From: a virus
Length of the DNA stretch: 64,000 bases
IMG/VR virus record: IMGVR_UViG_3300020478_000007
Location: 1-64,000 of that record
Strand: one strand, 5' to 3'
Shown: positions 1,124 to 63,736 of the stretch, piece after piece
Position numbering within the stretch: position 1 is the first letter of the stretch
How the letters are laid out: the number at the start of each line of letters is the position of its first letter
The notes under the pieces: generated by a model
What the model saw: only the letters and a program-made list of their open reading frames with translations
Database searches by the model: none
What the model was told of the DNA's origin: nothing
Made by a program: the position numbers and the translations under genes

Positions 1124-1753
1124 ATGGAAGAATCCCTGATAGAACCCGGCCATTTTGGGGACTCATCTGACAACATTCTTGTTCTCTATGATTTCGTAGA
1201 CCCTGTCGATCTCAGAATCATTCAAAGGTTTTTACCTACGATCAACGAATGGGATAACCCACGGGAGACCGAATACAACGAAGATGGTGAATGCATTTAC
1301 GATGCTTCTTATTGGTGGGATCGCATGTGCAGCGCTTCAATTCTTGAAGAGATCAACCCTGAGATTTTCAAGTTGATTGATAAATACATTTTAAAAATGC
1401 AGTTCGCTATTGAAGATAAGTTCAATCTCGCAGTTCATAAACGACCGCCGGTGCTTGTCCGTTGGCTACCAGGGAATGAGCAATTGCCGCATGCTGACAA
1501 ACAGTTGAATGATGGCACCCCTAACCCGTTTCCCACTTACGACATAAATTCGATTATCTATTGGAATGAAGATTTCGAAGGCGGCGATTTTTATTATCCC
1601 GAGCATGGCATGGTTTTACCAATCGAAGAAGGAATGGCTGTAGCCCACCCAGGGGACATCCACTATTTGCATGGGGTTCGCCCTGTTACTGATGGTGTCA
1701 GATGGACAACACCATCTTTCTACACAATCACCCAATTAGGAGGGGAAGAATGA
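1124..1753 (+). CDS. 2OG-Fe(II) oxygenase, P4H-like (1)
   Basis: 209 aa. Iron ligands of the double-stranded beta-helix are visible: H123 and D125 in LPHADK and H183 in YLHGV, with R193 as likely 2OG-binding residue. The stretch FEGGDFYYPE and the AHPGDIHYLHGV segment match prolyl-4-hydroxylase-like oxygenases. Such enzymes use O2 and 2-oxoglutarate to hydroxylate protein or small-molecule substrates. No Shine-Dalgarno is seen; TACACT lies 7 bases before ATG, suggesting a leaderless message. First gene of the overlapped oxygenase operon; ATG of the next gene overlaps its stop. Substrate unknown; the neighbouring (F/H)FPP protein is a candidate. Confidence 0.85.
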   Translation: MEESLIEPGHFGDSSDNILVLYDFVDPVDLRIIQRFLPTINEWDNPRETEYNEDGECIYDASYWWDRMCSASILEEINPEIFKLIDKYILKMQFAIEDKFNLAVHKRPPVLVRWLPGNEQLPHADKQLNDGTPNPFPTYDINSIIYWNEDFEGGDFYYPEHGMVLPIEEGMAVAHPGDIHYLHGVRPVTDGVRWTTPSFYTITQLGGEE

Positions 1754-2475
1754 AAGACATTGAGGCTTATCAAATAGGGCAACCAGGTGCTTGTATGACT
1801 CTTTACAAGAATCTTTTCCCAAGTGACCAAACATACCCACAGCGGTTAGAAGCGATCTTGACTGAAGACGACCCGTTTTTCAGATGGAACAATGCCAGAG
1901 TTGGTTTCGTGGAGGAGATGCTGGATTACAGGGACTGCTCTGACTTCAAATACGGTGGCACTAAAGGGATTAAGTTTGAACAGTTCACGAACCCTCCTGA
2001 AGAATTCGCTGACGCTCGAGAAATCTACGACGAAGTTATGGGACCAGTCCATGCTTGCGTGGAACATTATTGCGAAAACCTAAATCTTGGGACTTTGGAA
2101 TACTTTGAAGCGCCTAATTTCGTTAGATACAAAGAAGGCCAACATTTTCAGGTTCATCCTGATTGCGGGTTCTCATACACTTGCACGACTTCTGTCGTGG
2201 CTTTCTTCAATACCTGTGGCGAAGACTACACAGGCGGCGAATTGGTGTTCCCTTACCAAGACATAAAATTCACGCCACATGCGGGGGACATGGTTGTCTT
2301 CCCATCTAATTACCCTTACGTCCACCAATCTTTGCCGATCGAGACAGGCACCAAATATTCCTTAGTGGTGATGTATGACTACAACGATTTAAATCACCGC
2401 TCAGACAACTTGACTCTTGAAACCCAAATAGGCATCGAAGACGCAACTGGACAGGTACAGTCAGCGAGTTCATGA
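1750..2475 (+). CDS. 2OG-Fe(II) oxygenase, P4H-like (2)
   Basis: 241 aa from the ATG at 1750, chosen because AGGAGGGG lies just upstream and the ATG overlaps the previous stop by 4 bases. Ligands H136 and D138 (QVHPDCG) and H192 (VHQSLP) are present, with K202 or a nearby basic residue for 2OG. TGGELVFPY and AGDMVVFPSNYPYVHQ are hallmarks of the prolyl-4-hydroxylase alpha-subunit-like (P4Hc) fold. Probably active. Substrate unknown; translationally coupled to its neighbours. Confidence 0.87.
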   Translation: MKDIEAYQIGQPGACMTLYKNLFPSDQTYPQRLEAILTEDDPFFRWNNARVGFVEEMLDYRDCSDFKYGGTKGIKFEQFTNPPEEFADAREIYDEVMGPVHACVEHYCENLNLGTLEYFEAPNFVRYKEGQHFQVHPDCGFSYTCTTSVVAFFNTCGEDYTGGELVFPYQDIKFTPHAGDMVVFPSNYPYVHQSLPIETGTKYSLVVMYDYNDLNHRSDNLTLETQIGIEDATGQVQSASS

Positions 2476-3191
2476 AAGTAACACTGACTCGGACCCACCA
2501 GAACCCTCCTCAAATAACTCAATGTCGCCCGCGACGAGAGTGGATGGACGCGACATATAAAAAACATGCCTACAAGTGTCTGCCCTTAACCGCCGCCAAT
2601 GTCAATGGTTGGGAGTTAAGACTCCAACAAGATGTAGTAGTTAAATGGGATGGAGGGAACACGGTCCCTAAAGTCTTAAGCGGTGAAAAGATCACACACA
2701 CGTTAGAGAACGGCCACGAGTACGAACGCGATGTTGTTGTCCCGAGCATTATTAGCATCATGTCTTTCACTGTCGGGTGGGCCATAAACACACCACCAGG
2801 GCACAGTGTTCTGCTATCAGGCCCTCCTAATTATTTTATTGATGGCGCCGTTCCGTTAACTGCGATGGTTCCTGGTTGGTGGCCAGACGAAGTGAATATG
2901 AATTGGATGATGACCACTCCTGGCAAAGAAGTTGTCTTCCCTGAGGGTATGCCATTTATGTTTTTTCAGATCGTTGAAGACGATTTTCAGTGCAATGTGG
3001 AATTAGATGTTAAGAACATTTGGGATGACGATCAATTGATGGCCTCCCGCCAATCGTATGGGAATGCTAAAACGGCTAAAATGAGAGAACAGCCATGGTC
3101 ATGGATGGGGAGTGTCAGAACTGGCCTAAACGAAAAGGGTGAGCAGATAGGCCCCAAACATGAGGGGCACCCAACGCTTCAGGAGCCATAA
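2472..3191 (+). CDS. DUF6065-like protein
   Basis: 239 aa, overlapping the previous stop (ATGA). The N-terminal CRPRREWMDAT..KHAYKCLPLTAANVNGWE and central SFTVGWAINTPPGHSVLLSGPPN fit the DUF6065 family, found in phages and beside oxygenases; its biochemical role is not known to me. Rich in Pro and Trp. No obvious signal peptide or membrane segment. Its place inside the oxygenase operon suggests a part in the same pathway. Family assignment is from memory of the motif and should be treated as probable. Confidence 0.6.
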   Translation: MKVTLTRTHQNPPQITQCRPRREWMDATYKKHAYKCLPLTAANVNGWELRLQQDVVVKWDGGNTVPKVLSGEKITHTLENGHEYERDVVVPSIISIMSFTVGWAINTPPGHSVLLSGPPNYFIDGAVPLTAMVPGWWPDEVNMNWMMTTPGKEVVFPEGMPFMFFQIVEDDFQCNVELDVKNIWDDDQLMASRQSYGNAKTAKMREQPWSWMGSVRTGLNEKGEQIGPKHEGHPTLQEP

Positions 3192-4261
3192 TGATCCGTG
3201 TTCTAGACAACGTGACACTTGATGATCTGACTAGATACCCTGAGGATTTTGAAGGCATACTTAATCAGCACCCTCTTGTGCTTTTCCCGAAGTTGAATGC
3301 TACCGAAGAAGAAAAAGATGTTGTGGCTGACGTCTTTGGTTTGGTTTTGCCTAATGATCATGTTTCACGATATGAAGTTACTTACAACCACATGTTCAAA
3401 GTCATGGAAGACATGGGTAAAACCTCATTGAAAGATGCTCTTCTAGAGTCAAGAGGTCCTAGCGGAGTTGACCCTCATTCATCTCCCAAAATGAATCCGT
3501 GGCACTACGAAAACAATGAGATGTTAAATCCACCCGTGCACGGGTTGTGGTCGATGGACAAGTTCCCTAAAAAAAGAGGGGTTGGGAGGACTGGTTTCAT
3601 TGACGGCGGGTTGATTTATGACAGGATGCCTGATCGTTTCCACGAGTTTTCCCACAAAGTGCAAACTGTAAGTGTCCCAGGGTTTATGCCAGTGGACATG
3701 GACTGGTTTCGTAGTCAGGCTTACAGAACAGTTGCCGCAGGGGAACCGTTTTGGATCCCGGTTCCTGAAACATCTGATGCGATAGTGGTGGATCCTAAAC
3801 CATTGGCAATGGGACACCCTGTCACGGGGCGATATGTGATTCGTTCGGTGACACCCTTTCCCCCAGAAGATCCCGGTAAACGCCCTAAAGAGATGTGGCG
3901 TTTATGGCAAGAGTCAGAGATCACGAAAAGTAATACATGGGGAGAAACTTATGGGGCGGTTTATGAACACGATTTCGATATTTATGCCAACGGAGGGCAA
4001 CAATTCCTAGAAGAAGAGTGTGATCCGCGACTTCTTTTTGATTTCAAAACGTGGTTGTATGAATACATAGAAACTGAAACAAATCAGTTTTGGTTGCAAT
4101 GGAATGAGGGGGATTTGTTGGCTCTAGACATATTTTCTTTAATGCATGCAGTCGAAGGTGGGTTTAATAAAAATGAGAGGCTTCTAAGAGGGCGGTATTA
4201 CTTCGGTATGGGTTTCAGAGGCGATCCACACGGGAAGCGCCCAGTCACGGAGTTCTTATGA
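3191..4261 (+). CDS. TauD/TfdA-like 2OG dioxygenase with HxE iron site
   Basis: 356 aa, one-base overlap with the gene before. The PWHYENN motif places H105 and E107 where TauD-family enzymes have HxD; HxE is known from clavaminate synthase, so activity is plausible. The distal His lies in DIFSLMHAVEGGF, followed by an Arg-rich RLLRGRYY that should bind 2OG. WNEGDLLALD matches the TauD motif W.pGDl...D. Length is somewhat above the 280-300 aa usual for TauD. Substrate unknown. The next gene is a related protein with a degenerate site, so the two may form a complex. Confidence 0.75.
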   Translation: MIRVLDNVTLDDLTRYPEDFEGILNQHPLVLFPKLNATEEEKDVVADVFGLVLPNDHVSRYEVTYNHMFKVMEDMGKTSLKDALLESRGPSGVDPHSSPKMNPWHYENNEMLNPPVHGLWSMDKFPKKRGVGRTGFIDGGLIYDRMPDRFHEFSHKVQTVSVPGFMPVDMDWFRSQAYRTVAAGEPFWIPVPETSDAIVVDPKPLAMGHPVTGRYVIRSVTPFPPEDPGKRPKEMWRLWQESEITKSNTWGETYGAVYEHDFDIYANGGQQFLEEECDPRLLFDFKTWLYEYIETETNQFWLQWNEGDLLALDIFSLMHAVEGGFNKNERLLRGRYYFGMGFRGDPHGKRPVTEFL

Positions 4262-5310
4262 AAATCCAAAACTTTTCGTATCTCCGAGTGGAAGACATTC
4301 TTGATGGTGCGGATGAATTCAGAGCGCTCCTATTTAAAGAAGGAGTTTTGGCGTTCAGGGGCTTAAACCTGACAGTTCAAGACTTTGCAGACATAACCCA
4401 AGCACTTTCTATATCTGAGAAGCCGCTAGAGGATTGGTCACGGGGTAAAGCCACAACAGAAGCCTTTCTTACAGCCGACCGACGTTTTGGCCAACCGATG
4501 TATGACCTTGAAGAACTAGACCGTGGGGATCTGACTAAAACTACGCCTGTGGAAAGAGCCGGTATAGATGAATACACATTGAGTGGTTCATTCATTCGTA
4601 GAAACGAAAATTTTGCCACACGGTTCGAACAAATGGCTAAGGGTGTGGGGACAGGCGGTGAACCACCCGGTAAAGGAGATGTTCTTTACCCTGGGCAAGA
4701 AAAAGCGTCACGGCAAACAATGATTTTTTGGAATATGGATGATGCCTATAAACAGCACTTGTTGAGAACAAATGCCATCCACATGCATACCTTCACTGCT
4801 CCGAAAGGGGCGGGTGGTTTGGGTTTTGTCGACATGTCTGAAGCATTTAAGGCTCTTCCATCTTCATGGGTTGATCCTTTAAAGAAAGCACACAAAAAAG
4901 AAACTCAAGTCTCTTACATGCCAGATGGGGTTACCCAATATCCTCACCCTGTTATTAAGTTGCATTGGTATGCCTCGTACCCTGTTTTGCATTCCACGGG
5001 AACCAACCTTGGCAACCCTCAACTCCCATTTGAGTTTGAGGAAGAATGTATTGAACCTATGGAATTTTTTAAATGGGTGTTCGATTATGTTGTCGATCCT
5101 GATAACCAGCAGTGGTGGGATTGGGAACAAGGAGATCTTGTTATTTACGACGCCTACCGTTTGCAAACAGCGTGGGGTGCTGGGTTTGGTTTAGATGAAC
5201 TTGTTTTTGATCACATCAAGTATCACGGAGGGAACCAATATGCTGTCCAAACTTTACCCCCACGAGATCAGCAGTACATAGTACCTGAAGGGCATTCATA
5301 TCATGGTTGA
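4258..5310 (+). CDS. TauD-like protein with degenerate iron site
   Basis: 350 aa, ATGA overlap with the gene before. The fold is readable: FWNMDDAY aligns with the TauD WHTD region, KGAGGLGFVDM with the loop after it, and WEQGDLVIYDAYRLQTAWGAGFG with the distal-His region. The first His is Asn (N159) and the distal His is Gln, so two of three iron ligands are missing. It may be a non-catalytic partner of the preceding TauD-like protein, or it may have lost iron chemistry. The intact 1 kb frame argues against a pseudogene. Confidence 0.65.
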   Translation: MKIQNFSYLRVEDILDGADEFRALLFKEGVLAFRGLNLTVQDFADITQALSISEKPLEDWSRGKATTEAFLTADRRFGQPMYDLEELDRGDLTKTTPVERAGIDEYTLSGSFIRRNENFATRFEQMAKGVGTGGEPPGKGDVLYPGQEKASRQTMIFWNMDDAYKQHLLRTNAIHMHTFTAPKGAGGLGFVDMSEAFKALPSSWVDPLKKAHKKETQVSYMPDGVTQYPHPVIKLHWYASYPVLHSTGTNLGNPQLPFEFEEECIEPMEFFKWVFDYVVDPDNQQWWDWEQGDLVIYDAYRLQTAWGAGFGLDELVFDHIKYHGGNQYAVQTLPPRDQQYIVPEGHSYHG

Positions 5311-6154
5311 ACACTACGGGAACGGGGTTTCTCATTATAAGAACATGATTGATGTCCCTCAGTCGATCATTGATGAGTTGCTGTATTTACGGGATGCTGA
5401 ATTTGACGCTCAATATAAAAAAGATGGGGATCGACTTATCAGCACACACACAGGGATAGTTGACAATATTGATGTGGTGCTCCAAAAGCCTGTTCGTGTA
5501 CAAGTCCACCAACCCCCTGTTGAGGCTAGTGACGAACATCATGAATGGTGGAAGTATGCTTCTGATGTCTGTTGGAGTGTCTTACTTAAATATCTTGAGC
5601 GTTACCCACATTTAATGTCACAGATTTGGTGGTGTAGTCGGGGGCACTCATTGGTTTATGAACCTGGGGCACGGTTACTAGCCCATCATGACAATGATGT
5701 TGGTTATGCATGGCAAGTAAATGAAAAGATTGCAGGTTTCACAGAAGTTTCCGCACAGAATGTTGTAAGCACCACGATGCATCTTTGTGATTCGGAAGGG
5801 GGCAGTATGGTTTTCCCTTACTTAGACAATCTAGAAATAGAAACAAAGGCAGGGGATGTTTTAGTTTTCCCCGCTAATTATTTAGCCACTCACGGAATAA
5901 CGCCTGTCCAGGAAGGCAGCAGAAGGATCTCATATCTAACGTTTTGGGGGCAGGGCTCGCATTTAATAGGTGGCGGGAACGTTCTCCCAATTAGAGATCG
6001 TGACCATCGTGTAGATAATTCATTAACGTGGGTCAAAACCCTCCATCAAGACTTCCTTGAATCGTCGGGGTGGGATCTTCAAACATTTTATGATCGTCAT
6101 CCACAATGGCTATCAAGTAGAAACATCCCTGATCATTGGGGTGGCCATGTCTGA
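5303..6154 (+). CDS. 2OG-Fe(II) oxygenase, P4H-like (3)
   Basis: 283 aa, start overlaps the previous gene by 8 bases. Iron ligands H128 and D130 (LAHHDND) and H197 (ATHGI) are present, with R207/R208 for 2OG. GGSMVFPYLDN and AGDVLVFPANYLATHG are P4H-like. About a third of residues align by eye with the product of the next gene (start 6147), including RVQVHxPPV, SQxWWCxRGHxLVY and HHDND, so the two arose by tandem duplication. A C-terminal extension (TW..TLHQDFLESSGW) is shared too. Substrate unknown. Confidence 0.87.
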   Translation: MVEHYGNGVSHYKNMIDVPQSIIDELLYLRDAEFDAQYKKDGDRLISTHTGIVDNIDVVLQKPVRVQVHQPPVEASDEHHEWWKYASDVCWSVLLKYLERYPHLMSQIWWCSRGHSLVYEPGARLLAHHDNDVGYAWQVNEKIAGFTEVSAQNVVSTTMHLCDSEGGSMVFPYLDNLEIETKAGDVLVFPANYLATHGITPVQEGSRRISYLTFWGQGSHLIGGGNVLPIRDRDHRVDNSLTWVKTLHQDFLESSGWDLQTFYDRHPQWLSSRNIPDHWGGHV

Positions 6155-7016
6155 GATTCAGCATTTCCAAAACGGGATTGCTCTTATTCGGGATGCTATG
6201 GAAATCCCTAAAGAGATAATTGATGAGTTGTTGGTTATTAGCAAAGGTCAATGGGAGCATCAGTATGTGGTTGAAGGGGATGAGGTTGTTAACAAAGCAA
6301 CCGGTACCCGAACTCCTATCGAGTTCCATGGGCAGGATCCAATCAGAGTCCAGGTCCATGCTCCCCCAGTAACCCCACAAGTGGAATTCTGGGATGACTT
6401 TTGGCGACAAGCCGCAGATGTTTGTTATGCAGCACTTTTGCGGTACATCGAAAAATACCCGATGATTCTTTCTCAACTTTGGTGGTGCAACCGTGGGCAT
6501 GCGCTTGTTTATGATGCCCCTATGGGGCACCTCTTTGGGCATCATGACAATGATTGTGGGTATTCATTCGCTGCATGGGATGAAATCGTCGGGAAGTCAG
6601 AATTAACTACTCACAACGTGGTTAGTACAACCCTGCATTTGGTAGACACCCCCGACGGAGGGGGAGTGACTTTTCCTTATGCCGATAATCTTCATTTCCC
6701 TTGCAGGGCTGGTGACATTTTGTTGTTCCCCGCTAATTATTTAGGGGCGCATGAAATTGAATACGTTAATGAAGGACACCGTATGTCTTACTTGACGTTT
6801 TATTGCCAAGGTTCCAATGAACCTCTTCGGATACCTCCAAACGCTGACCAAGCAGAGATTTTTTTCAGAGAACATCAGACTGAGGCTTCTCTCACCTGGT
6901 GTGACACAATCGACACTGACTTTATGGAGTCATCCGGTTGGTCATTGGAGCGGTTAGATAAAGAGCATCCAAATTGGTTACAACGAGGACCAGGTGAGCC
7001 GTGGGGTCATGATTAA
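6147..7016 (+). CDS. 2OG-Fe(II) oxygenase, P4H-like (4), tandem paralogue
   Basis: 289 aa from ATG 6147, which overlaps the previous stop by 8 bases like the other operon junctions; an upstream in-frame ATG at 6057 would overlap far more and was not used. H132 and D134 (GHHDND), H202 (GAHEI) and R212 form the expected metal and 2OG site. Closely resembles the product of 5303-6154. VTFPYADN and AGDILLFPANYLGAHE mark the beta-helix strands. Probably active; substrate unknown. Confidence 0.87.
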   Translation: MSEIQHFQNGIALIRDAMEIPKEIIDELLVISKGQWEHQYVVEGDEVVNKATGTRTPIEFHGQDPIRVQVHAPPVTPQVEFWDDFWRQAADVCYAALLRYIEKYPMILSQLWWCNRGHALVYDAPMGHLFGHHDNDCGYSFAAWDEIVGKSELTTHNVVSTTLHLVDTPDGGGVTFPYADNLHFPCRAGDILLFPANYLGAHEIEYVNEGHRMSYLTFYCQGSNEPLRIPPNADQAEIFFREHQTEASLTWCDTIDTDFMESSGWSLERLDKEHPNWLQRGPGEPWGHD

Positions 7017-7863
7017 GGAGTATTTAGGTGGCGGTGTTGTTCTTTATAAAAATGTTCTTGATCTTGATTTTGATCGTTTGCGTTCTTTCGCTTTAGAACA
7101 AGCAGAAGCCGAGATGGCTGAAATGTACACGCCAGGGAAAGACCCACGTACAGGTGAAGAGGGTTACCTAAACAGAAACGGATATTTCTTTGATGCTAAA
7201 GGAATAGAGTGCATGCCTCGGCATTGCGCTTTTGTTTACTCCGACCCTGATCCAGATATTAAAGAAATTTTAGAAACCATTGAAACGACAACTGACAAAT
7301 GTGTGACTGATTACATTGATCAGTTCTCTATAGCCGCAATGTCAGTATGGTGGAAAATAAGAGGACATATTCTCGTCTATCCTCCTGATTCGTTTCTTGG
7401 GCTTCATGCTGATACCAGTACTGATTACGCTTATGGCTCACCTCACCCGCCAAATCAAATAGCAACTCGAACGGTCGTTAGCACCATCACATTCTTTAAT
7501 GATTCCGTAGATGATATGTCACAACTCGATGGCACAAATTTTATGGGTGGGTGGTTAGCGTTTAAGTATCTCGATATTAGGTATAAGCCACGCAAAGGTG
7601 ATTTGATTGTGTTCCCCTCAAATTACATGGGGGCTCATGCTTGCGAGATGGTTAAAGGTGGCACAAGGTTTAGCCATGTCGGGTGGTATTGCCAAGGGAC
7701 CCCAAATCCAGAAGTAGGAGAGAATGTAATTGACCCGACAGAAGCCACGGAAGAAATGTTGGGACGATCAACCAACGTCTATTTAACTAAGCCGTTAGGT
7801 CGAGCGATGACAGAAGTCTGGGCAGGTCAACAACCTGAACGTTGGGGTTACGGAGAAGACTAA
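7009..7863 (+). CDS. 2OG-Fe(II) oxygenase, P4H-like (5)
   Basis: 284 aa from ATG 7009 (8-base overlap with previous stop; GTG 6994 is the alternative). H133 and D135 (GLHADTS), H210 (GAHACE) and R220 (GTRFSH) form the catalytic set. GGWLAFKYLDI and KGDLIVFPSNYMGAH match the family. Same overall layout as the two genes before it and as the minus-strand gene at 37677-38768 (SVWWKIRGHILVY compared with NQLWWRTRGHFMRY). Last gene of the operon; it converges with the minus-strand gene at 7860-8633, overlapping it by 4 bases. Confidence 0.86.
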   Translation: MIKEYLGGGVVLYKNVLDLDFDRLRSFALEQAEAEMAEMYTPGKDPRTGEEGYLNRNGYFFDAKGIECMPRHCAFVYSDPDPDIKEILETIETTTDKCVTDYIDQFSIAAMSVWWKIRGHILVYPPDSFLGLHADTSTDYAYGSPHPPNQIATRTVVSTITFFNDSVDDMSQLDGTNFMGGWLAFKYLDIRYKPRKGDLIVFPSNYMGAHACEMVKGGTRFSHVGWYCQGTPNPEVGENVIDPTEATEEMLGRSTNVYLTKPLGRAMTEVWAGQQPERWGYGED

Positions 7864-37108: not shown

Positions 37109-37688
37109 TGTTTTTGTGACAGAACCAATATTCTCACCTAGCGAGTGCAACGAAATTATTGAGTCAGTTAATAAGAAAAAAAACATTGAGTTTCAAAATT
37201 GCTGTCCTCCTGGTGTTTGCCGTTACGCAGAAACAGAGGGGTTAGAAGAGTTCCACGGTCAATGTGGTTACAACCTGAGACAGTCTCTTAGTTTGCAATA
37301 TGATCAATTCCCTTTTGTGTTCCAAAAGTTTTACGACGTTGCAGAGTATTACAACGACAAGTATTACGGTTTTGAAATTGAGAGCGTGTCAGAAATCCAT
37401 ATAAATAAGTACGCAGCAAGTGACAGACAATTAGAGGCTCATATTGATTGGGGACATGTTTTACCAACTAAACGGAAAATCACGGTCTCTATGTCACTGT
37501 CGCCTTTAAGCGCTTATGAAGGTGGCATTCTAAGTTGTTATGAAACTGATCAACCTGTCATAGGTGCTATCGAGCAAGGTGCTGCGACGGTATTCCCTTC
37601 TTGGACACTCCATGAGTTGTCTCGGATTACCTCAGGCGAACGTTATTCCGCTGTGGGATGGATTGTTGGGACTAACTCATTTAGATAG
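37101..37688 (+). CDS. 2OG-Fe(II) oxygenase, PiuC/PHD-type paralogue
   Basis: 195 aa from ATG 37101 (8-base overlap with the gene before). H114 and D116 (EAHIDWGHV), H171 (TLHELSRI) and R181 (GERYSAVGW) are in register with the previous gene product. Cys pair GQCGYN and CCPPGVC near residues 34-55 is unusual. The gene ends 12 bases into the convergent minus-strand oxygenase gene. Confidence 0.85.
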   Translation: MSSVFVTEPIFSPSECNEIIESVNKKKNIEFQNCCPPGVCRYAETEGLEEFHGQCGYNLRQSLSLQYDQFPFVFQKFYDVAEYYNDKYYGFEIESVSEIHINKYAASDRQLEAHIDWGHVLPTKRKITVSMSLSPLSAYEGGILSCYETDQPVIGAIEQGAATVFPSWTLHELSRITSGERYSAVGWIVGTNSFR

Positions 37689-38768
37689 CGAGTAGCCTTG
37701 TTTCTCGAACACTTCGTCGCCTTCTTTAAACCTGTCGCCGCCTGATTTGTTTAATCCTTCACCTTCTAAGGGCCGGTTTTGGGCTATTGGGTTGTAATAA
37801 AAAGGCTGGTTGTCCCATTGGGGGGATTTTTTGAAGACTTCAGTGTAGTCATCGTGGAGGGTGTTTAACCAAACTGGTTGCGTCCATGAGTTGGTCATGT
37901 GTGGTTCTGCAACGTCGGGATCTGGGAGGCCATTGGTGCCTTGCCCGAAAGCACATAGGTAGGCGTGACGGTCCCCACTTTCGACTGTTGTAATTTCGTG
38001 CATTCCCATAAAGTTCGCAGGAAAGATTATGACGTCCCCAGCGTCTAGATCGAGATCTAGGTCAAAGTACGGGAATTTGAAAACACCGCCTGTGTAATCT
38101 CGGCCTGATTGACTTAAGTTGCAAGTAACGGAGATTGTCTGTCTGGAGGGGAATTCACTCATTGGGTGGTACCGTTTCCCGTTTACAGTTCGGTAGTTGG
38201 TGTCGCAATCAGCGTGTGCGCCTATGTGTCCTGTCGTCCTGTAGCGCATGAAGTGTCCACGTGTACGCCACCAGAGTTGGTTGACGATATAAGGGTACTT
38301 ATCGATGTAAAGCATTAAACACTTGTACACCGTGTCTTCCCAGTCATGGAATATGTCTGTAAATTCTTTTGGTGTCCCGTCGTGCCCTTCTCTGGCTATG
38401 TCAGTGATGCAGTGCAGCATCCGTATCGGGGCAGTTTCAACTTGCTCAGGAGTGAACTTGTTGTCGTCTTCATTAAGGGCATAGGGTTTCCCGGCTTCGT
38501 CTTCGAAGTATCGCCAGCGTCTACCGTGCGCTATTTCTGATTGTTCGTTAAGCCATGGTTCCAAAGCGTCCCATTTGCTCATGTCGAGAGCCCCGTGGAA
38601 TACGGAGATACCGCCTACATGGTGGGTGGAAGGCCATTGAAGTATGTCTTCGGCTATCTCAGCGGTTATTTGGGGGGTGCGCCCATAAAAAAAATTATGC
38701 GTGTTCCCATCCTGGGCCTGCTTTCCAGCCTCTGGCCCGTTTAAGTTCGGCGAGGGTGAAAGTGTCAT
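37677..38768 (-). CDS. 2OG-Fe(II) oxygenase, P4H-like, minus strand
   Basis: 363 aa with a polar N-terminal extension of about 45 residues. H185 and D187 (GAHADCDT), H257 (GMHEITT) and R267 (GDRHAY) are the expected ligands. SRQTISVTCNLS, YTGGVFKFPYFDL and AGDVIIFPANFMGMHE resemble the oxygenases at 5303-7863, so it belongs to the same subfamily. The start overlaps the upstream gene by 74 bases; a shorter start could apply, but no in-frame Met occurs before residue 63. Confidence 0.8.
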   Translation of the reverse strand: MTLSPSPNLNGPEAGKQAQDGNTHNFFYGRTPQITAEIAEDILQWPSTHHVGGISVFHGALDMSKWDALEPWLNEQSEIAHGRRWRYFEDEAGKPYALNEDDNKFTPEQVETAPIRMLHCITDIAREGHDGTPKEFTDIFHDWEDTVYKCLMLYIDKYPYIVNQLWWRTRGHFMRYRTTGHIGAHADCDTNYRTVNGKRYHPMSEFPSRQTISVTCNLSQSGRDYTGGVFKFPYFDLDLDLDAGDVIIFPANFMGMHEITTVESGDRHAYLCAFGQGTNGLPDPDVAEPHMTNSWTQPVWLNTLHDDYTEVFKKSPQWDNQPFYYNPIAQNRPLEGEGLNKSGGDRFKEGDEVFEKQGYSLSK

Positions 38769-53372: not shown

Positions 53373-54554
53373 ATGAGGTATCCGTTGGTGTCGGTTGATT
53401 GTCATGCTGGTTTGTCTATTGATGGGTATAGGGAGTATTTGGATCCTGTGTGGCGGGGTCCTTTTGATGAGTGGCGGGAGGGTTTTGTTAACCGGTCTGC
53501 TCGTTCGGTGGCCGGGGATCGGTCTAGGAATTGGGATAGTGCCCGTAGGGTGGCGGATTTGGATTATGAGGGGGTGGCTGTTGAGGTTGTTTTCCCTAAT
53601 ACGATCACTCCTTTCGCTTTGGGTAACTCGATTACGGGCCGTTTGCCTGTGACTAGGGCTGATTATGCTCGTGGGTTGGCTGGTATACGGGCTCATAACA
53701 GGTGGTTGAAGGAGTTTTGTGATGATTTGCCGGAAAGAAGGTGTGGTTTACCTCTGGTTTTCTTAAATGACCTGGATGACACGTTGGATGACTTGGATTG
53801 GATAGCGGAGAATGGGTTTACGTCGTTCATGTTGCCTCCTGTACCTCCAGACGGGGGTGTACCTGGGCTATACGACCCTATTTATGACCGTATATGGAAG
53901 GTAATCGAAGATTATGACCTCACAATCACCCAACATTCAGGCGCAGGAACCCCAAATTACGGAAATGTGCCCTCCGCGACGATACTTTTCCTCATGGAAT
54001 CCGCATATTTCGCCCACAGGCACCTCTCACACATGATTTTGTCAGGAGTATTCGAAAGATTCCCCCAATTACGGTACGTCATGACCGAACAAGACGTCTC
54101 CTGGGTCATAAAAGAACTCGAATACATGGACGAATACCACCTATGGGCCACAGCAGGCGTAATCCCACAACTAGGAGACTTCCAAAACACCCTCCCCGAC
54201 CAACCATCCGACTACTTCCACCAAAACGTATGGATAGGAGCAAGTTTCCCAACCCCCTCAGAAGCAGACGCCATGCAACAAGTCGGCGTAGACCGAATGA
54301 TGTGGGGAAACGACTACCCACACAAAGAAGGAACCTTCCCCTACACACGCCAACACCTACAACGCACATTCCACAACTGGAAAGAAGCCGATCTCAGAAA
54401 AATTTTTTTCGAAAACGCCTGCGGCGTTTATCGGATTGACATTAACCAAGTAGAGGATGTTGTTGAACGTATAGGCCCCACTGTTAAAGAAGTCGCTACA
54501 CGTTTAAAAGAGATCCCACCAGACACATTGAGCGTCGCCTTCATAAGACCGTAA
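53373..54554 (+). CDS. amidohydrolase-2 family protein, host-derived
   Basis: 393 aa with a strong ribosome site (AGGGTGGGGG). It has the family signs VDCHAGLSIDGY (metal site D-x-H), NWDSARRVADLDYEGVAVEVVFPNT, ITQHSGAGTPNYG, SAYFAHRHLSHMILSGVFERFPQLRYVMTEQ, and WGNDYPHKEG with the metal-binding Asp. This type (Amidohydro_2, ACMSD-like TIM barrel) is frequent in Actinobacteria and unusual in phages. It would hydrolyse or decarboxylate a small aromatic or acid substrate. Codon use flips from G/T-ending to A/C-ending at about 53870 within the gene. Confidence 0.8.
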   Translation: MRYPLVSVDCHAGLSIDGYREYLDPVWRGPFDEWREGFVNRSARSVAGDRSRNWDSARRVADLDYEGVAVEVVFPNTITPFALGNSITGRLPVTRADYARGLAGIRAHNRWLKEFCDDLPERRCGLPLVFLNDLDDTLDDLDWIAENGFTSFMLPPVPPDGGVPGLYDPIYDRIWKVIEDYDLTITQHSGAGTPNYGNVPSATILFLMESAYFAHRHLSHMILSGVFERFPQLRYVMTEQDVSWVIKELEYMDEYHLWATAGVIPQLGDFQNTLPDQPSDYFHQNVWIGASFPTPSEADAMQQVGVDRMMWGNDYPHKEGTFPYTRQHLQRTFHNWKEADLRKIFFENACGVYRIDINQVEDVVERIGPTVKEVATRLKEIPPDTLSVAFIRP

Positions 54555-57907: not shown

Positions 57908-58285
57908 ATGTCCCCAAGACAGAAATATGCACAACGAATCCACTTAGAGCGTGCGATGAAGTTCGCTCAAAGGTTGGAGGACGGTTGGGAGTACCATGAA
58001 GAACTCCGCCTCGAAGGAAGGCTCCCTTTAATAAAAGGGCGACGCTTTCAATTGCAGGGCGAGTCCGGTTGGTTTATCTTCCACTCCGTTTACTTCGATC
58101 CCCGTCATGGAGAGAACGGCGTAAGAATTATCGAATGCTATGGCCCTCTTACCAAAGCCGGTGATCCGAAGGCAGGTTGCCATCGCCATGACTTCCCAAT
58201 AGACGAAGGATTGGAATGGAACAAAAGAAAACTCGTATACACAGTCAAGCGTGTTGAAGCAAAGAAAGAAAGAGAGGTCAGGTAA
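57908..58285 (+). CDS. hypothetical 125-aa basic protein
   Basis: Basic and helical at the start (QKYAQRIHLERAMKFAQRLEDGW), then a beta-rich middle (FQLQGESGWFIFHSVYF). Overlaps the metallopeptidase gene by one base. Function unknown. Confidence 0.55.
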   Translation: MSPRQKYAQRIHLERAMKFAQRLEDGWEYHEELRLEGRLPLIKGRRFQLQGESGWFIFHSVYFDPRHGENGVRIIECYGPLTKAGDPKAGCHRHDFPIDEGLEWNKRKLVYTVKRVEAKKEREVR

Positions 58286-58947
58286 TGGCCCATACAAAAG
58301 ATTCACAAAAAGGCAGGGTCTATGCTGCCGAACTGGCAATAGAGGAACACAAAGGACGAACCTTTGACTCCATTGAAGAGGTGTACAAGTTTCTTCATGG
58401 CGTGATCGAAAGGGACACCTTCGCACGTTGGTTCCCTAGGGCCTACTCCCAACTGACTTCCCTCAGCGATTGGGAACGCACCCGTCCACCCAAGTGGCGA
58501 TTAAATGATCGCCGATATAAGGAGTGGGCGGCGTATGACCATAAAAAAGTCTTCGGTCGAGAAGAAGGTCTTTGGGTTTCGTGGAACCACAGAAACAACA
58601 ACGGTAGAGGGGGCGGCGCCTATTGGATGCCAGGAGACAAACGTATCCAGATGTCTGACTACCACGCCAATGAAATGATCTGTCTTCACGAACTGGCTCA
58701 CGCCGTCTGCCAATACGAGTTTGGTACTGGGGTGAAGCACCACTGGCAGTTCTGCATGGTCTACCTCAAGTTGGTAGGCAATGTCATGGGTGTCGAGGCT
58801 CGCAACATACTTCGTCAATCCTTCAAGGACCATAAGGTGAAGTACACCAAGCCTCGTGCCAAGAGAGAACTCTCTGAAGAGCAGAAGGAAGTTCTTAGGG
58901 CTCGCATCGCTGTAGCCAGAGCAGCGAAGGAGGCTAAGAATACATGA
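58285..58947 (+). CDS. putative zinc metallopeptidase (HELAH motif)
   Basis: 220 aa. MICLHELAHAVCQYEFGTG contains HELAH at 135-139, with H152/H153 as candidates for the third ligand. This resembles small phage zincins, some related to SprT/ArdC-type domains. Residues 90-125 (WVSWNHRNNNGRGGGAYWMPGDKRIQMSDY) are Gly-rich. Basic C-terminus. Ends 7 bases before the tmRNA-like RNA, so probably cotranscribed with it. Confidence 0.7.
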   Translation: MAHTKDSQKGRVYAAELAIEEHKGRTFDSIEEVYKFLHGVIERDTFARWFPRAYSQLTSLSDWERTRPPKWRLNDRRYKEWAAYDHKKVFGREEGLWVSWNHRNNNGRGGGAYWMPGDKRIQMSDYHANEMICLHELAHAVCQYEFGTGVKHHWQFCMVYLKLVGNVMGVEARNILRQSFKDHKVKYTKPRAKRELSEEQKEVLRARIAVARAAKEAKNT

Positions 58948-58953
58948 GGGGTA

Positions 58954-59035
58954 GGGGGTGGATAGGTTTCGACGTTGGTGAAAGCCGCATGCGGAGCACC
59001 AGCGGACGGGGGTTCAACTCCCCCCACCTCCACAA
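58954..59035 (+). ncRNA. compact tmRNA-like RNA lacking the tag-template domain
   Basis: Seven-bp acceptor stem pairs 58954-58960 (GGGGGTG) with 59025-59031 (CACCTCC), including G58956-T59029 at the 3:70 position. The T arm is 59008-59024 (5-bp GGGGG/CCCCC stem, TTCAACT loop). GGTTTCGAC, the tmRNA signature, is at 58965-58973. Helix 2 (GTTGGTG, 58974-58980, with CACCAGC, 58997-59003) closes directly on a short AAAGCCGCATGCGGAG loop, so the roughly 280 nt of tag reading frame and pseudoknots of normal tmRNA are missing. Discriminator A59032, then CAA, not CCA. A 7-T run follows (59036-59042). SmpB and alanyl-tRNA synthetase binding would be expected from the fold; function is inferred. Confidence 0.75.
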
Positions 59036-59051
59036 TTTTTTTAAAAGGTAC

Positions 59052-59238: not shown

Positions 59239-59276
59239 GGGTCTCATAGTCTTCTTGGAGGTGGACTATGAGACCC
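59239..59276 (+). other. 13-bp perfect hairpin in leader of 59303 gene
   Basis: GGGTCTCATAGTC (59239-59251) pairs perfectly with GACTATGAGACCC (59264-59276). The loop TTCTTGGAGGTG carries a Shine-Dalgarno-like GGAGG and a GTG. The rest of 59081-59302 shows no gene. May control translation or termination of the downstream operon. Confidence 0.55.
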
Positions 59277-62053: not shown

Positions 62054-62239
62054 ACGGATATCTATATGTTTGATTGCTTTCCTGGTAGGGAGAGCATCGT
62101 TAGATAAGCGGACAGTCCCGAAGTTCTTTTTGACGACACCCCCGCAACCTTCACAAGGTTCGTCGTAAATTTCATCAAACCCATGCTTGACGTCTAATTC
62201 AAGACCGCAGTCAACACAGTTATACAAATAAGTAGGCAT
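62048..62239 (-). CDS. FmdB-like zinc-ribbon protein
   Basis: 63 aa. MPTYLYNCVDCGLELDVKHGFDEIYDEPCEGCGGVVKKNFG is the FmdB-type zinc ribbon (CxxC...CxxC). Such proteins are small regulators or structural zinc modules, frequent in phages. Its start overlaps the stop of the SDR gene by one base. Confidence 0.75.
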   Translation of the reverse strand: MPTYLYNCVDCGLELDVKHGFDEIYDEPCEGCGGVVKKNFGTVRLSNDALPTRKAIKHIDIRL

Positions 62240-63042
62240 TACTCACCTTGCATCATTTCTGCAATCTCACCCCAGTAAGAAGCAGGGGTGCCTGAGTAAC
62301 GCATATCTAAATTCATTTCAGGGAAGTTGATCTTTGGGTGATCTAAAACTACAGAAAAGTGTCGCACTAACGCTCCAGCCGCATCGGTTGTATCGATAGT
62401 ACCCCCAGGCGCTCCTTGTTCTGACCAGCGCCCAAAGGCTTCTCCCATTAATGGCCCTAAACGATTAGCGACTTCGGTGGGGGCAGTCCATCCCATGACT
62501 ACTCGGATGAAGCGGTAATCAGGTTCTTCTACTCTCCAAGTTCGTATGCATTGATCAAGAGCCGCTTTTGAGGCTGTGTATGGAGCCAAGAGAGCCAGTC
62601 GATCGTCAACAGTCCGGGATGATAAGTAAGCAATCGCTCCATCAGGGTTCATGTAGGGCAGAACAGCCGCTGTCGCTAAATTAGCGCCAACCACATTCGT
62701 CCCATACAACTCTTGCCAATTGCTCATTGTGTCTAGATCAATATCGCGGAGTCTTAGTAAACGAGCAAAGCCCGCGCAATAAACAACAAGGTCGAAGCCC
62801 CCAAGATGCTCGTTGGCCTCCATAGCCATGTCCATCATGTCTTCGGCGACTGTCACATCTGCTTCGATTGGTTTAGCGGACATAGAGATTAAAGGACCGT
62901 TGTTGACAGTGAACTCTTCAAGAAGTTTGCGGTAACGACGAGCGACAACAACAACTTGGGCACGGTCAAGAGATGCTTCTTTAGCGATAGCAGCGCCAAT
63001 CCCTGAGGATGCGCCAATCACTAAAACTCTTTTACCCTCCAT
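62239..63042 (-). CDS. SDR-family NAD(P)-dependent oxidoreductase
   Basis: 267 aa. GASSGIG (10-16), DV near 62-63, CAG at the NAG position, N115, S141/S142, Y155 and K159 (YTASK) form the SDR cofactor site and catalytic tetrad. Classical SDR length. Substrate unknown; ferredoxin and nuclease genes precede it in the same minus-strand operon, and RxRxY (ARRYRKL) after the second strand favours NADP. Not usual in phages. Confidence 0.85.
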   Translation of the reverse strand: MEGKRVLVIGASSGIGAAIAKEASLDRAQVVVVARRYRKLLEEFTVNNGPLISMSAKPIEADVTVAEDMMDMAMEANEHLGGFDLVVYCAGFARLLRLRDIDLDTMSNWQELYGTNVVGANLATAAVLPYMNPDGAIAYLSSRTVDDRLALLAPYTASKAALDQCIRTWRVEEPDYRFIRVVMGWTAPTEVANRLGPLMGEAFGRWSEQGAPGGTIDTTDAAGALVRHFSVVLDHPKINFPEMNLDMRYSGTPASYWGEIAEMMQGE

Positions 63043-63055
63043 CTATAAAAGGGTA

Positions 63056-63427
63056 TCAGCGTTTCCCGCCGTCGTAGGGTACTGCGTGTCCTGTTTCGAT
63101 AAGAACGTCGTTTAAGCACACACCTTCTTGGTTAAGGACTTTCCCCAAAACTCGCCCAAACTTTCCTCGTCCATCCAGAGAGGTTTGGATTATCGGGTTC
63201 ATGCCTGCGTGTTCCAGTAGCCAGCGTCCAACAAAGTCTTTAGCGGCTAGGCCACGTTCCTTTTCTTCAAGGTCCCTAGTGCGTGACTCTGGGGTGTTAA
63301 TACCGACGAGGCGGATCCGCACGTGGTATTTGATATCAAACCCAAGATCTAGGTCAACGTCGATTGTGTCGCCATCGACAACTCTTGTCACCGTTGAACG
63401 GTAGTGGAACAGGTTGTCAGCGCTCAT
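63056..63427 (-). CDS. staphylococcal nuclease-like (SNase) protein
   Basis: 123 aa. TRVVDGDTIDVDLDLGFDIKYHVRIRLVGINTPESRTR and RGKFGRVLGKV match thermonuclease (SNase) with catalytic D, E and two R. No signal peptide, so it should act inside the cell, for example on host DNA or RNA. Confidence 0.85.
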   Translation of the reverse strand: MSADNLFHYRSTVTRVVDGDTIDVDLDLGFDIKYHVRIRLVGINTPESRTRDLEEKERGLAAKDFVGRWLLEHAGMNPIIQTSLDGRGKFGRVLGKVLNQEGVCLNDVLIETGHAVPYDGGKR

Positions 63428-63442
63428 AAATTTATGTTAGCC

Positions 63443-63736
63443 CTAATCGCTGACCTCTAGGAAGATGCACTCCCCTGGGCATTCCTCTGCTGCTTCTATA
63501 GCGGCTTGCACATCACTAGCGGGAACATTTGCCATGCCAGTTGACATCTGGAGGATTGGGTCTTCGTAGACGTTTTTCCCGTCGTTGTACACCGTTGGCC
63601 AGTCTGGTTCTTTGACGTAAGCCAAGCCATCTTGAGCCATCCCAAACACCGATGGGCATATCTCTTCACAGAGACCATCCCCGGTGCAGAGATCCTGGTC
63701 AATCCATACTTTTAATTTCACATCCTCATGTTTCAT
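63443..63736 (-). CDS. ferredoxin with C-x2-D-x2-C-x3-CP cluster motif
   Basis: 97 aa. C17-x2-D20-x2-C23-x3-C27-P with a later CPGEC resembles the single-cluster ferredoxin of Pyrococcus furiosus type, where Asp replaces one Cys ligand. VWIDQDLCTGDGLCEEICPSVF is also like actinobacterial P450 redox partners. It would carry electrons; the many 2OG oxygenases do not normally need a ferredoxin, so another host enzyme may use it. Confidence 0.85.
   Translation of the reverse strand: MKHEDVKLKVWIDQDLCTGDGLCEEICPSVFGMAQDGLAYVKEPDWPTVYNDGKNVYEDPILQMSTGMANVPASDVQAAIEAAEECPGECIFLEVSD

What the first reader, a model, noticed from the sequence alone, without database searches (positions are those of the whole stretch)
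58954..59042. Compact tmRNA-like RNA that keeps the tRNA-like domain but has no tag template
The sequence shows a full tRNA-like domain in one piece: 7-bp acceptor stem with G3-U70 (the alanine identity pair), tmRNA signature GGTTTCGAC, helix 2 with 7-8 pairs, T arm with TTCAACT loop. Helix 2 is closed by a 16-base loop in place of the tag ORF and pseudoknots. The loop keeps GCATGCGGAG, close to the GCATGCCGAG that follows helix 2 in normal tmRNA, so an internal deletion of a full tmRNA is a likely origin. Known biology: tmRNA is charged with Ala, binds SmpB and rescues stalled ribosomes. Inference: this RNA could be charged and delivered to stalled ribosomes but offers no resume codon, so it might block host trans-translation, sequester SmpB or act as a rescue RNA of a new kind. 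It lies 7 bases after a metallopeptidase gene, before a T-run.
Basis: partly seen in the sequence, partly recalled or inferred. Interest (0 to 1): 0.95.

Follow-up and report, generated by a model that had tools for sequence, protein, structure and literature searches.

The report
Tagless mini-tmRNA carried by phages
This phage carries an 80-base RNA that copies only the tRNA-like head of tmRNA, the bacterial RNA that frees stuck ribosomes and tags their products; one phage was known to have such an RNA and over a hundred turn up here, so many phages probably use it to jam or redirect the host's ribosome rescue.

Summary
Window 58954-59035 (+) matches Rfam tmRNA (RF00023) at 77 bits (cut-off 47), with about 300 internal positions missing. 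It is a complete tRNA-like domain whose helix 2 ends in a small hairpin, with no tag frame and no pseudoknots. It is not unique. Pattern scans found 143 distinct compact RNAs of the same plan on about 190 viral loci, plus six Streptomyces phage isolates, where no RNA gene is annotated over it. All four helices covary (16 of 22 pairs change on both sides; 0/500 shuffles). The alanine identity pair G3-U70 and base A73 are kept in 143/143, though neither was required. The same scan of 85,000 cellular genomes found one copy, on a phage contig. None of 41 carrier records encodes SmpB; one also has a full tmRNA. This is not a new kind: phage DS6A is reported to carry a 'TLD only' tmRNA, and a similar molecule strongly inhibits tmRNA in E. 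coli. What is new is breadth, covariation and constraint on charging. Best reading: the RNA is alanylated, takes host SmpB and EF-Tu to stalled ribosomes, and competes with host tmRNA. Tagless rescue is the main rival. Expression and function are untested here.

The parts
58954..59035 (+). compact TLD-only tmRNA gene (whole match; mature RNA probably 58954-59032 plus added CCA)
   Evidence: Rfam RF00023 77 bits; model R1 84 bits without this sequence in training
58954..58960 (+). acceptor stem 5' strand GGGGGUG
   Evidence: 7/7 pairs with 59025-59031; covarying helix in relatives
58956..58956 (+). G3 of the G3-U70 alanine identity pair (partner U at 59029)
   Evidence: G-U in 143/143 distinct relatives, not required by the filter
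58961..58973 (+). D-loop-like segment GATAGGTTTCGAC
   Evidence: tmRNA signature in the Rfam alignment
58974..58980 (+). helix 2, 5' strand GTTGGTG
   Evidence: all 7 helix-2 pairs change on both sides in relatives; anchored test 0/5000 shuffles
58981..58996 (+). apical cap in place of tag frame and pseudoknots: A-rich bulge AAAG, hairpin CCG-CAUG-CGG, AG
   Evidence: hairpin covaries in relatives; no conserved Ala-start/stop frame
58997..59003 (+). helix 2, 3' strand CACCAGC
59004..59007 (+). GGAC between helix 2 and the T arm (first G can pair with the last C of TTCGAC)
59008..59024 (+). T arm GGGGG-TTCAACT-CCCCC
59025..59032 (+). acceptor 3' strand CACCTCC and discriminator A73; CCA not encoded
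59036..59042 (+). T7 run directly after the RNA, possible end of transcription
   Evidence: sequence; not scored as a terminator by the simple scan
58285..58947 (+). gene just upstream: putative zinc metallopeptidase with an HELAH motif (weak SprT-like match)
   Evidence: Pfam PF10263, 16.8 bits, below cut-off; found only in the window's own population

Best explanation
It is a phage-encoded tmRNA reduced to its tRNA-like domain, one member of a widespread phage RNA family. Inferred mechanism: host RNase P and CCA-adding enzyme mature it; host alanyl-tRNA synthetase charges it through G3-U70 and A73; host SmpB and EF-Tu bind it as they bind tmRNA and carry it to ribosomes stalled at mRNA ends. 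Having no resume codon, it cannot support tagging. By holding SmpB and occupying stalled A sites it competes with host tmRNA and damps or redirects trans-translation during infection, sparing phage products from tag-directed proteolysis. Shown here: structure, covariation, alanine identity, absence of a tag frame, phage distribution. Inferred: charging, SmpB binding, ribosome entry, inhibition and its benefit.
For: Identity. Family and selection: 143 distinct relatives; covariation score 0.705 against 0.152 shuffled, 0/500; anchored helix-2 pairing 98-69% over seven positions against a shuffled maximum of 66%, 0/5000. Charging: G3-U70 143/143 and A73 143/143 while acceptor pairs 4-7 covary. 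No template: 7 of 130 hairpin caps hold any in-frame GCN...stop. Host partner needed: no SmpB in 41 carrier records. [quoted passage not shown] a truncated tmRNA without the pseudoknot ring was crystallised with SmpB and EF-Tu on a stalled ribosome (PMC8363625).
Against: The cited inhibition worked whether or not the RNA could be charged, yet alanine identity is invariant in the phage family, so a pure SmpB sponge does not explain everything. One phage (123.6 kb record, G020) carries both a full-length and a compact tmRNA, odd for a plain inhibitor. No expression data. The primary paper (Mao 2009) could not be read.
Confidence: 0.6

Rival explanations
1. Tagless rescue RNA. Alanyl-RNA with SmpB enters the stalled ribosome, accepts the nascent chain onto alanine, and the chain is freed by drop-off and hydrolysis or by another release factor, giving an untagged or Ala-ended protein. 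Repeated entry could add several alanines.
For: Invariant G3-U70 and A73 are expected if the alanine is used. Coexistence with a full tmRNA in G020 suggests a separate job. Mitochondrial tmRNAs also lack a tag frame yet persist with SmpB (PMC11915505).
Against: No known step releases the peptide without a stop codon. The only cited experiment reports inhibition.
Confidence: 0.25
2. Decoy for a host RNA-targeting defence or tRNA-modifying enzyme, unrelated to ribosome rescue.
For: Phages often carry tRNA-like genes; some copies lie in tRNA arrays (LuckySocke, Shaeky).
Against: 134 of 170 loci have no tRNA gene in the stretch held. A general tRNA decoy would not need the tmRNA D-loop motif and alanine pair kept together.
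Confidence: 0.08
3. Remnant of integration at the host ssrA gene (attP or attL piece) or a decaying tmRNA pseudogene.
For: Many prophages integrate at ssrA, and 3' tmRNA ends occur in phages (one search lists attR and pseudogene records).
Against: Both ends of the tRNA-like domain are present and covary; no tyrosine integrase in the window phage and in only 6 of 41 carriers; the Mycobacterium-associated copy differs from the full-length tmRNA in the same assembly outside the invariant motifs.
Confidence: 0.02
4. One piece of a split tmRNA whose tag piece is encoded elsewhere in the phage.
For: Two-piece tmRNAs are common in marine phages (PMC9004378); permuted forms were found here too.
Against: Both strands of the acceptor stem lie on this one RNA and helix 2 is closed by its own hairpin, so there is no end to pair with a second piece; no second tmRNA match in 40 of 41 carriers.
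Confidence: 0.03

Closest known systems
Mycobacteriophage DS6A 'TLD only' tmRNA (tmID 11587; PMC4131195; Mao et al. 2009 as cited there)
   Same: Phage-borne, little more than the tRNA-like domain, no tag frame; a similar molecule inhibits tmRNA in E. coli.
   Different: A single case in the papers read; the DS6A record was not in the collections, so no sequence comparison was possible. Here there are 143 distinct sequences with covariation.
tmRNA, Rfam RF00023
   Same: Acceptor stem with G3-U70, TTCGAC D-loop-like segment, T arm, helix 2.
   Different: No tag reading frame, no pseudoknots, about 300 positions shorter.
Mitochondrial tmRNA (RF02544) and CDS-less plastid tmRNAs (PMC11915505)
   Same: tmRNA without a tag frame; SmpB retained by the mitochondrial carriers' nuclei.
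   Different: Organelle genes from reductive evolution; here phage genes under strong constraint that use the host's SmpB.
Full-length tmRNAs of phages (Streptomyces phages Faust and Daubenski, mycobacteriophage Bxz1) and permuted phage tmRNAs
   Same: Phage-borne tmRNA genes.
   Different: These carry tag templates; the compact form does not. One phage, G020, has both.

Membership tests
tmRNA (RF00023) | tRNA-like domain: 7-bp acceptor stem, D-loop-like TTCGAC segment, T arm | tested here: met
   77 bits, full ends matched; 7/7 acceptor pairs
tmRNA (RF00023) | alanine identity (G3-U70, A73) | tested here: met
   present in the window and in 143/143 relatives
tmRNA (RF00023) | tag reading frame with resume and stop codon | tested here: not met
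   16-nt cap with its own hairpin; no conserved frame in relatives
tmRNA (RF00023) | pseudoknot ring | tested here: not met
   about 300 model positions deleted
tmRNA (RF00023) | SmpB and EF-Tu binding, alanylation in practice | not testable with these tools
   needs biochemistry
phage TLD-only tmRNA (DS6A kind) | phage-borne RNA of little more than the tRNA-like domain | tested here: met
phage TLD-only tmRNA (DS6A kind) | homology to the DS6A sequence itself | not tested
   record absent from the collections
phage TLD-only tmRNA (DS6A kind) | inhibits host tmRNA | not testable with these tools
   reported for a similar molecule in E. coli (PMC4131195)
mitochondrial tmRNA (RF02544) | encoded by a mitochondrial genome | tested here: not met
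   phage record with terminase, tape measure and endolysin
permuted two-piece tmRNA (RF04321) | acceptor strands on two RNA pieces, 3' half first | tested here: not met
   both strands in normal order on one RNA; the window has no RF04321 match
canonical tRNA | D arm and anticodon arm | tested here: not met
   ARAGORN finds no gene; no RF00005 match in the window

The most novel reading that the evidence does not exclude
Phages widely encode a tag-free ribosome-rescue RNA that delivers alanine through host SmpB and frees nonstop chains without the degradation tag, perhaps with Ala ends: a rescue mode distinct from trans-translation and from ArfA or ArfB, and not merely a sponge.
Probability: 0.2. 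Interest if true: 0.88.

Novelty: new member of a known kind. Interest (0 to 1): 0.63.

Why it matters
Trans-translation is nearly universal in bacteria, and how phages deal with it is poorly known. A single TLD-only phage RNA was on record as a curiosity. Finding well over a hundred covarying versions, with the alanine identity never lost and with caps of at least two architectures, says many phages gain from putting a tagless tmRNA into the host. It gives a compact, testable anti-tagging or rescue RNA with culturable Streptomyces carriers, and a natural counterpart of the truncated tmRNAs built for structural work. Annotation tools miss it (ARAGORN finds none in its compact form), so it is probably under-reported.

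Tried and rejected
(1) attP or pseudogene reading: rejected by complete ends, covariation and missing integrase. (2) Split tmRNA: rejected by topology and absence of a second piece. (3) Origin by a recent internal deletion, from the GCATGC likeness: not supported, because that segment is a freely changing hairpin. (4) Conserved partner gene: all-against-all comparison of ORFs within 2 kb of 91 representatives gave only scattered families (capsid, portal, terminase, HNH), none in more than 14 loci. (5) SmpB in the phage: none in 41 records. (6) DS6A sequence: accessions JN698994 and NC_023744 not held. (7) Mao 2009 and Jacob 2004: not in the library. (8) Pseudomonas PA_L9, Alcaligenes and Ruegeria phage hits turned out to be permuted full tmRNAs, not compact ones. 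(9) The first MAFFT alignment, A1, misplaced the acceptor strand because linkers differ in length; the covariation count was therefore made on a subset with equal linkers (A2) and independently with anchored positions in Python.

Full report
What is there. At window 58954-59035 (+) Rfam's tmRNA model matches end to end at 77 bits, E 3.9e-28, with roughly 300 internal positions absent. The RNA has a 7/7 paired acceptor with G3-U70, A73, the tmRNA segment GGTTTCGAC, a 7-bp helix 2, GGAC, a T arm and then T7. ARAGORN reports nothing. The single-strand fold is -38.5 kcal/mol, z -2.8, with 3 of 200 shuffles as stable. The window is all but 53 bases of a 64,053-base virus record with terminase, tape measure, endolysin, exonuclease and SSB genes, no tyrosine integrase and no SmpB.

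Relatives. A BLAST of the neighbourhood against named phages matched only the RNA, at 85% in Streptomyces phages LuckySocke and GiJojo; pSt2308, Shaeky, BRock and Alone3 followed and were confirmed by Rfam or by model R1. In these records no RNA gene is annotated over it; in GiJojo a hypothetical protein is called across it. Requiring a fully paired acceptor leaves 143 distinct RNAs on 197 loci, a few of them the same record held twice. Shuffling the 20 bases upstream leaves 5-12.

Selection on structure. On 32 sequences with equal linkers, 96% of cells pair, 16 of 22 pairs change on both sides, and the covariation score is 0.705 against 0.152 in shuffles (0/500); sliding the partner by 1-3 columns destroys it. 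An alignment-free test on 91 representatives, counting helix-2 positions inward from the two fixed motifs, gives 98, 96, 90, 92, 80, 74 and 69% pairing at positions 1-7 against a shuffled maximum of 66% at any of them (0 of 5000 for each), and nothing beyond. Model R1, trained without the window, scores the window at 84 bits and 18 other compact loci at 52-91 bits; full tmRNA pieces and tRNAs stay at or below 31.

Alanine identity. Position 3-70 is G-U in 143/143 and position 73 is A in 143/143. The filter accepted any standard pair and did not look at position 73. Pairs 4 to 7 of the same helix change freely. G-U to G-C is a single step, so this is strong constraint, most simply for charging by alanyl-tRNA synthetase, which reads this pair (PMC8363625).

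The cap. Most members (130 of 143) have 7 pairs, an A-rich 5' bulge and a 3-bp or longer hairpin. Thirteen have a 12-19 nt cap, several of them bare tetraloop hairpins (ATTAT-TTCG-ATAAT, ATTAC-GCAA-GTAAT, GAGAC-GCGA-GTCTC). Two architectures suggest more than one origin, though 80-nt sequences cannot prove it. Only 7 of 130 caps contain any in-frame GCN...stop, so there is no conserved tag.

Distribution. The same pattern scanned over 85,000 prokaryote genomes (257 Gb) gave 53 hits, of which only one is compact. It lies on a contig with portal and major head protein genes, in a Mycobacterium assembly whose own tmRNA is full length. So the compact form is, at this sensitivity, phage-borne. Apart from one contig of the window's own population and one unrelated weak match, DNA similarity between the window and the other loci is confined to the RNA itself. 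Integrases occur in 6 of 41 carriers. One carrier, G020 (123.6 kb), has both a 392-nt tmRNA and a compact one.

What it most likely does. Established: SmpB with the tRNA-like domain mimics a tRNA, and a truncated tmRNA without the pseudoknot ring was seen with SmpB and EF-Tu on a stalled ribosome (PMC8363625, PMC3968760). Reported: the DS6A tmRNA is 'TLD only', and a similar molecule, chargeable or not, strongly inhibits tmRNA, perhaps by titrating SmpB (PMC4131195; PMC11915505). From this I take competition with host tmRNA as most likely (0.6). The unbroken alanine identity and the double-carrier phage keep a charged, ribosome-entering mode open (0.25). Expression, charging and SmpB binding are all inferred here.

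Verdict. Real and well supported as an RNA. It belongs to a known but barely documented kind, and the new part is that the kind is widespread and constrained in phages.

Noticed in passing
window 59239-59276: Perfect 13-bp inverted repeat GGGTCTCATAGTC...GACTATGAGACCC with a 12-base loop in the long non-coding gap between the RNA and the next gene; possible terminator, operator or second structured RNA.
   Followed up: no
window 1124-7863: Run of 2-oxoglutarate/Fe(II) oxygenase and TauD-type genes: five match Pfam above cut-off and two below, with another weak one at 37677-38768 (-); unusually many for a phage.
   Followed up: partly
window 53373-54554 and 62239-63736: Amidohydrolase gene (Pfam Amidohydro_2) and, by eye, a short-chain dehydrogenase and a ferredoxin on the minus strand near the right end: possible auxiliary metabolic genes.
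   Followed up: partly
L251:189-580 and L252:987-1068 (phage record G020): One 123.6-kb phage carries both a full-length tmRNA and a compact one about 31 kb apart; useful for separating their roles.
   Followed up: partly
   Followed up: partly
L003:2494-2736 (Streptomyces phage GiJojo): Annotated hypothetical protein 44 lies across the compact RNA on the same strand and is probably a spurious gene call.
   Followed up: no
L169:5905-6228 (-): ARAGORN's only tmRNA call among 170 loci stretches the compact RNA to 324 nt with an implausible tag, apparently a false extension.
   Followed up: no
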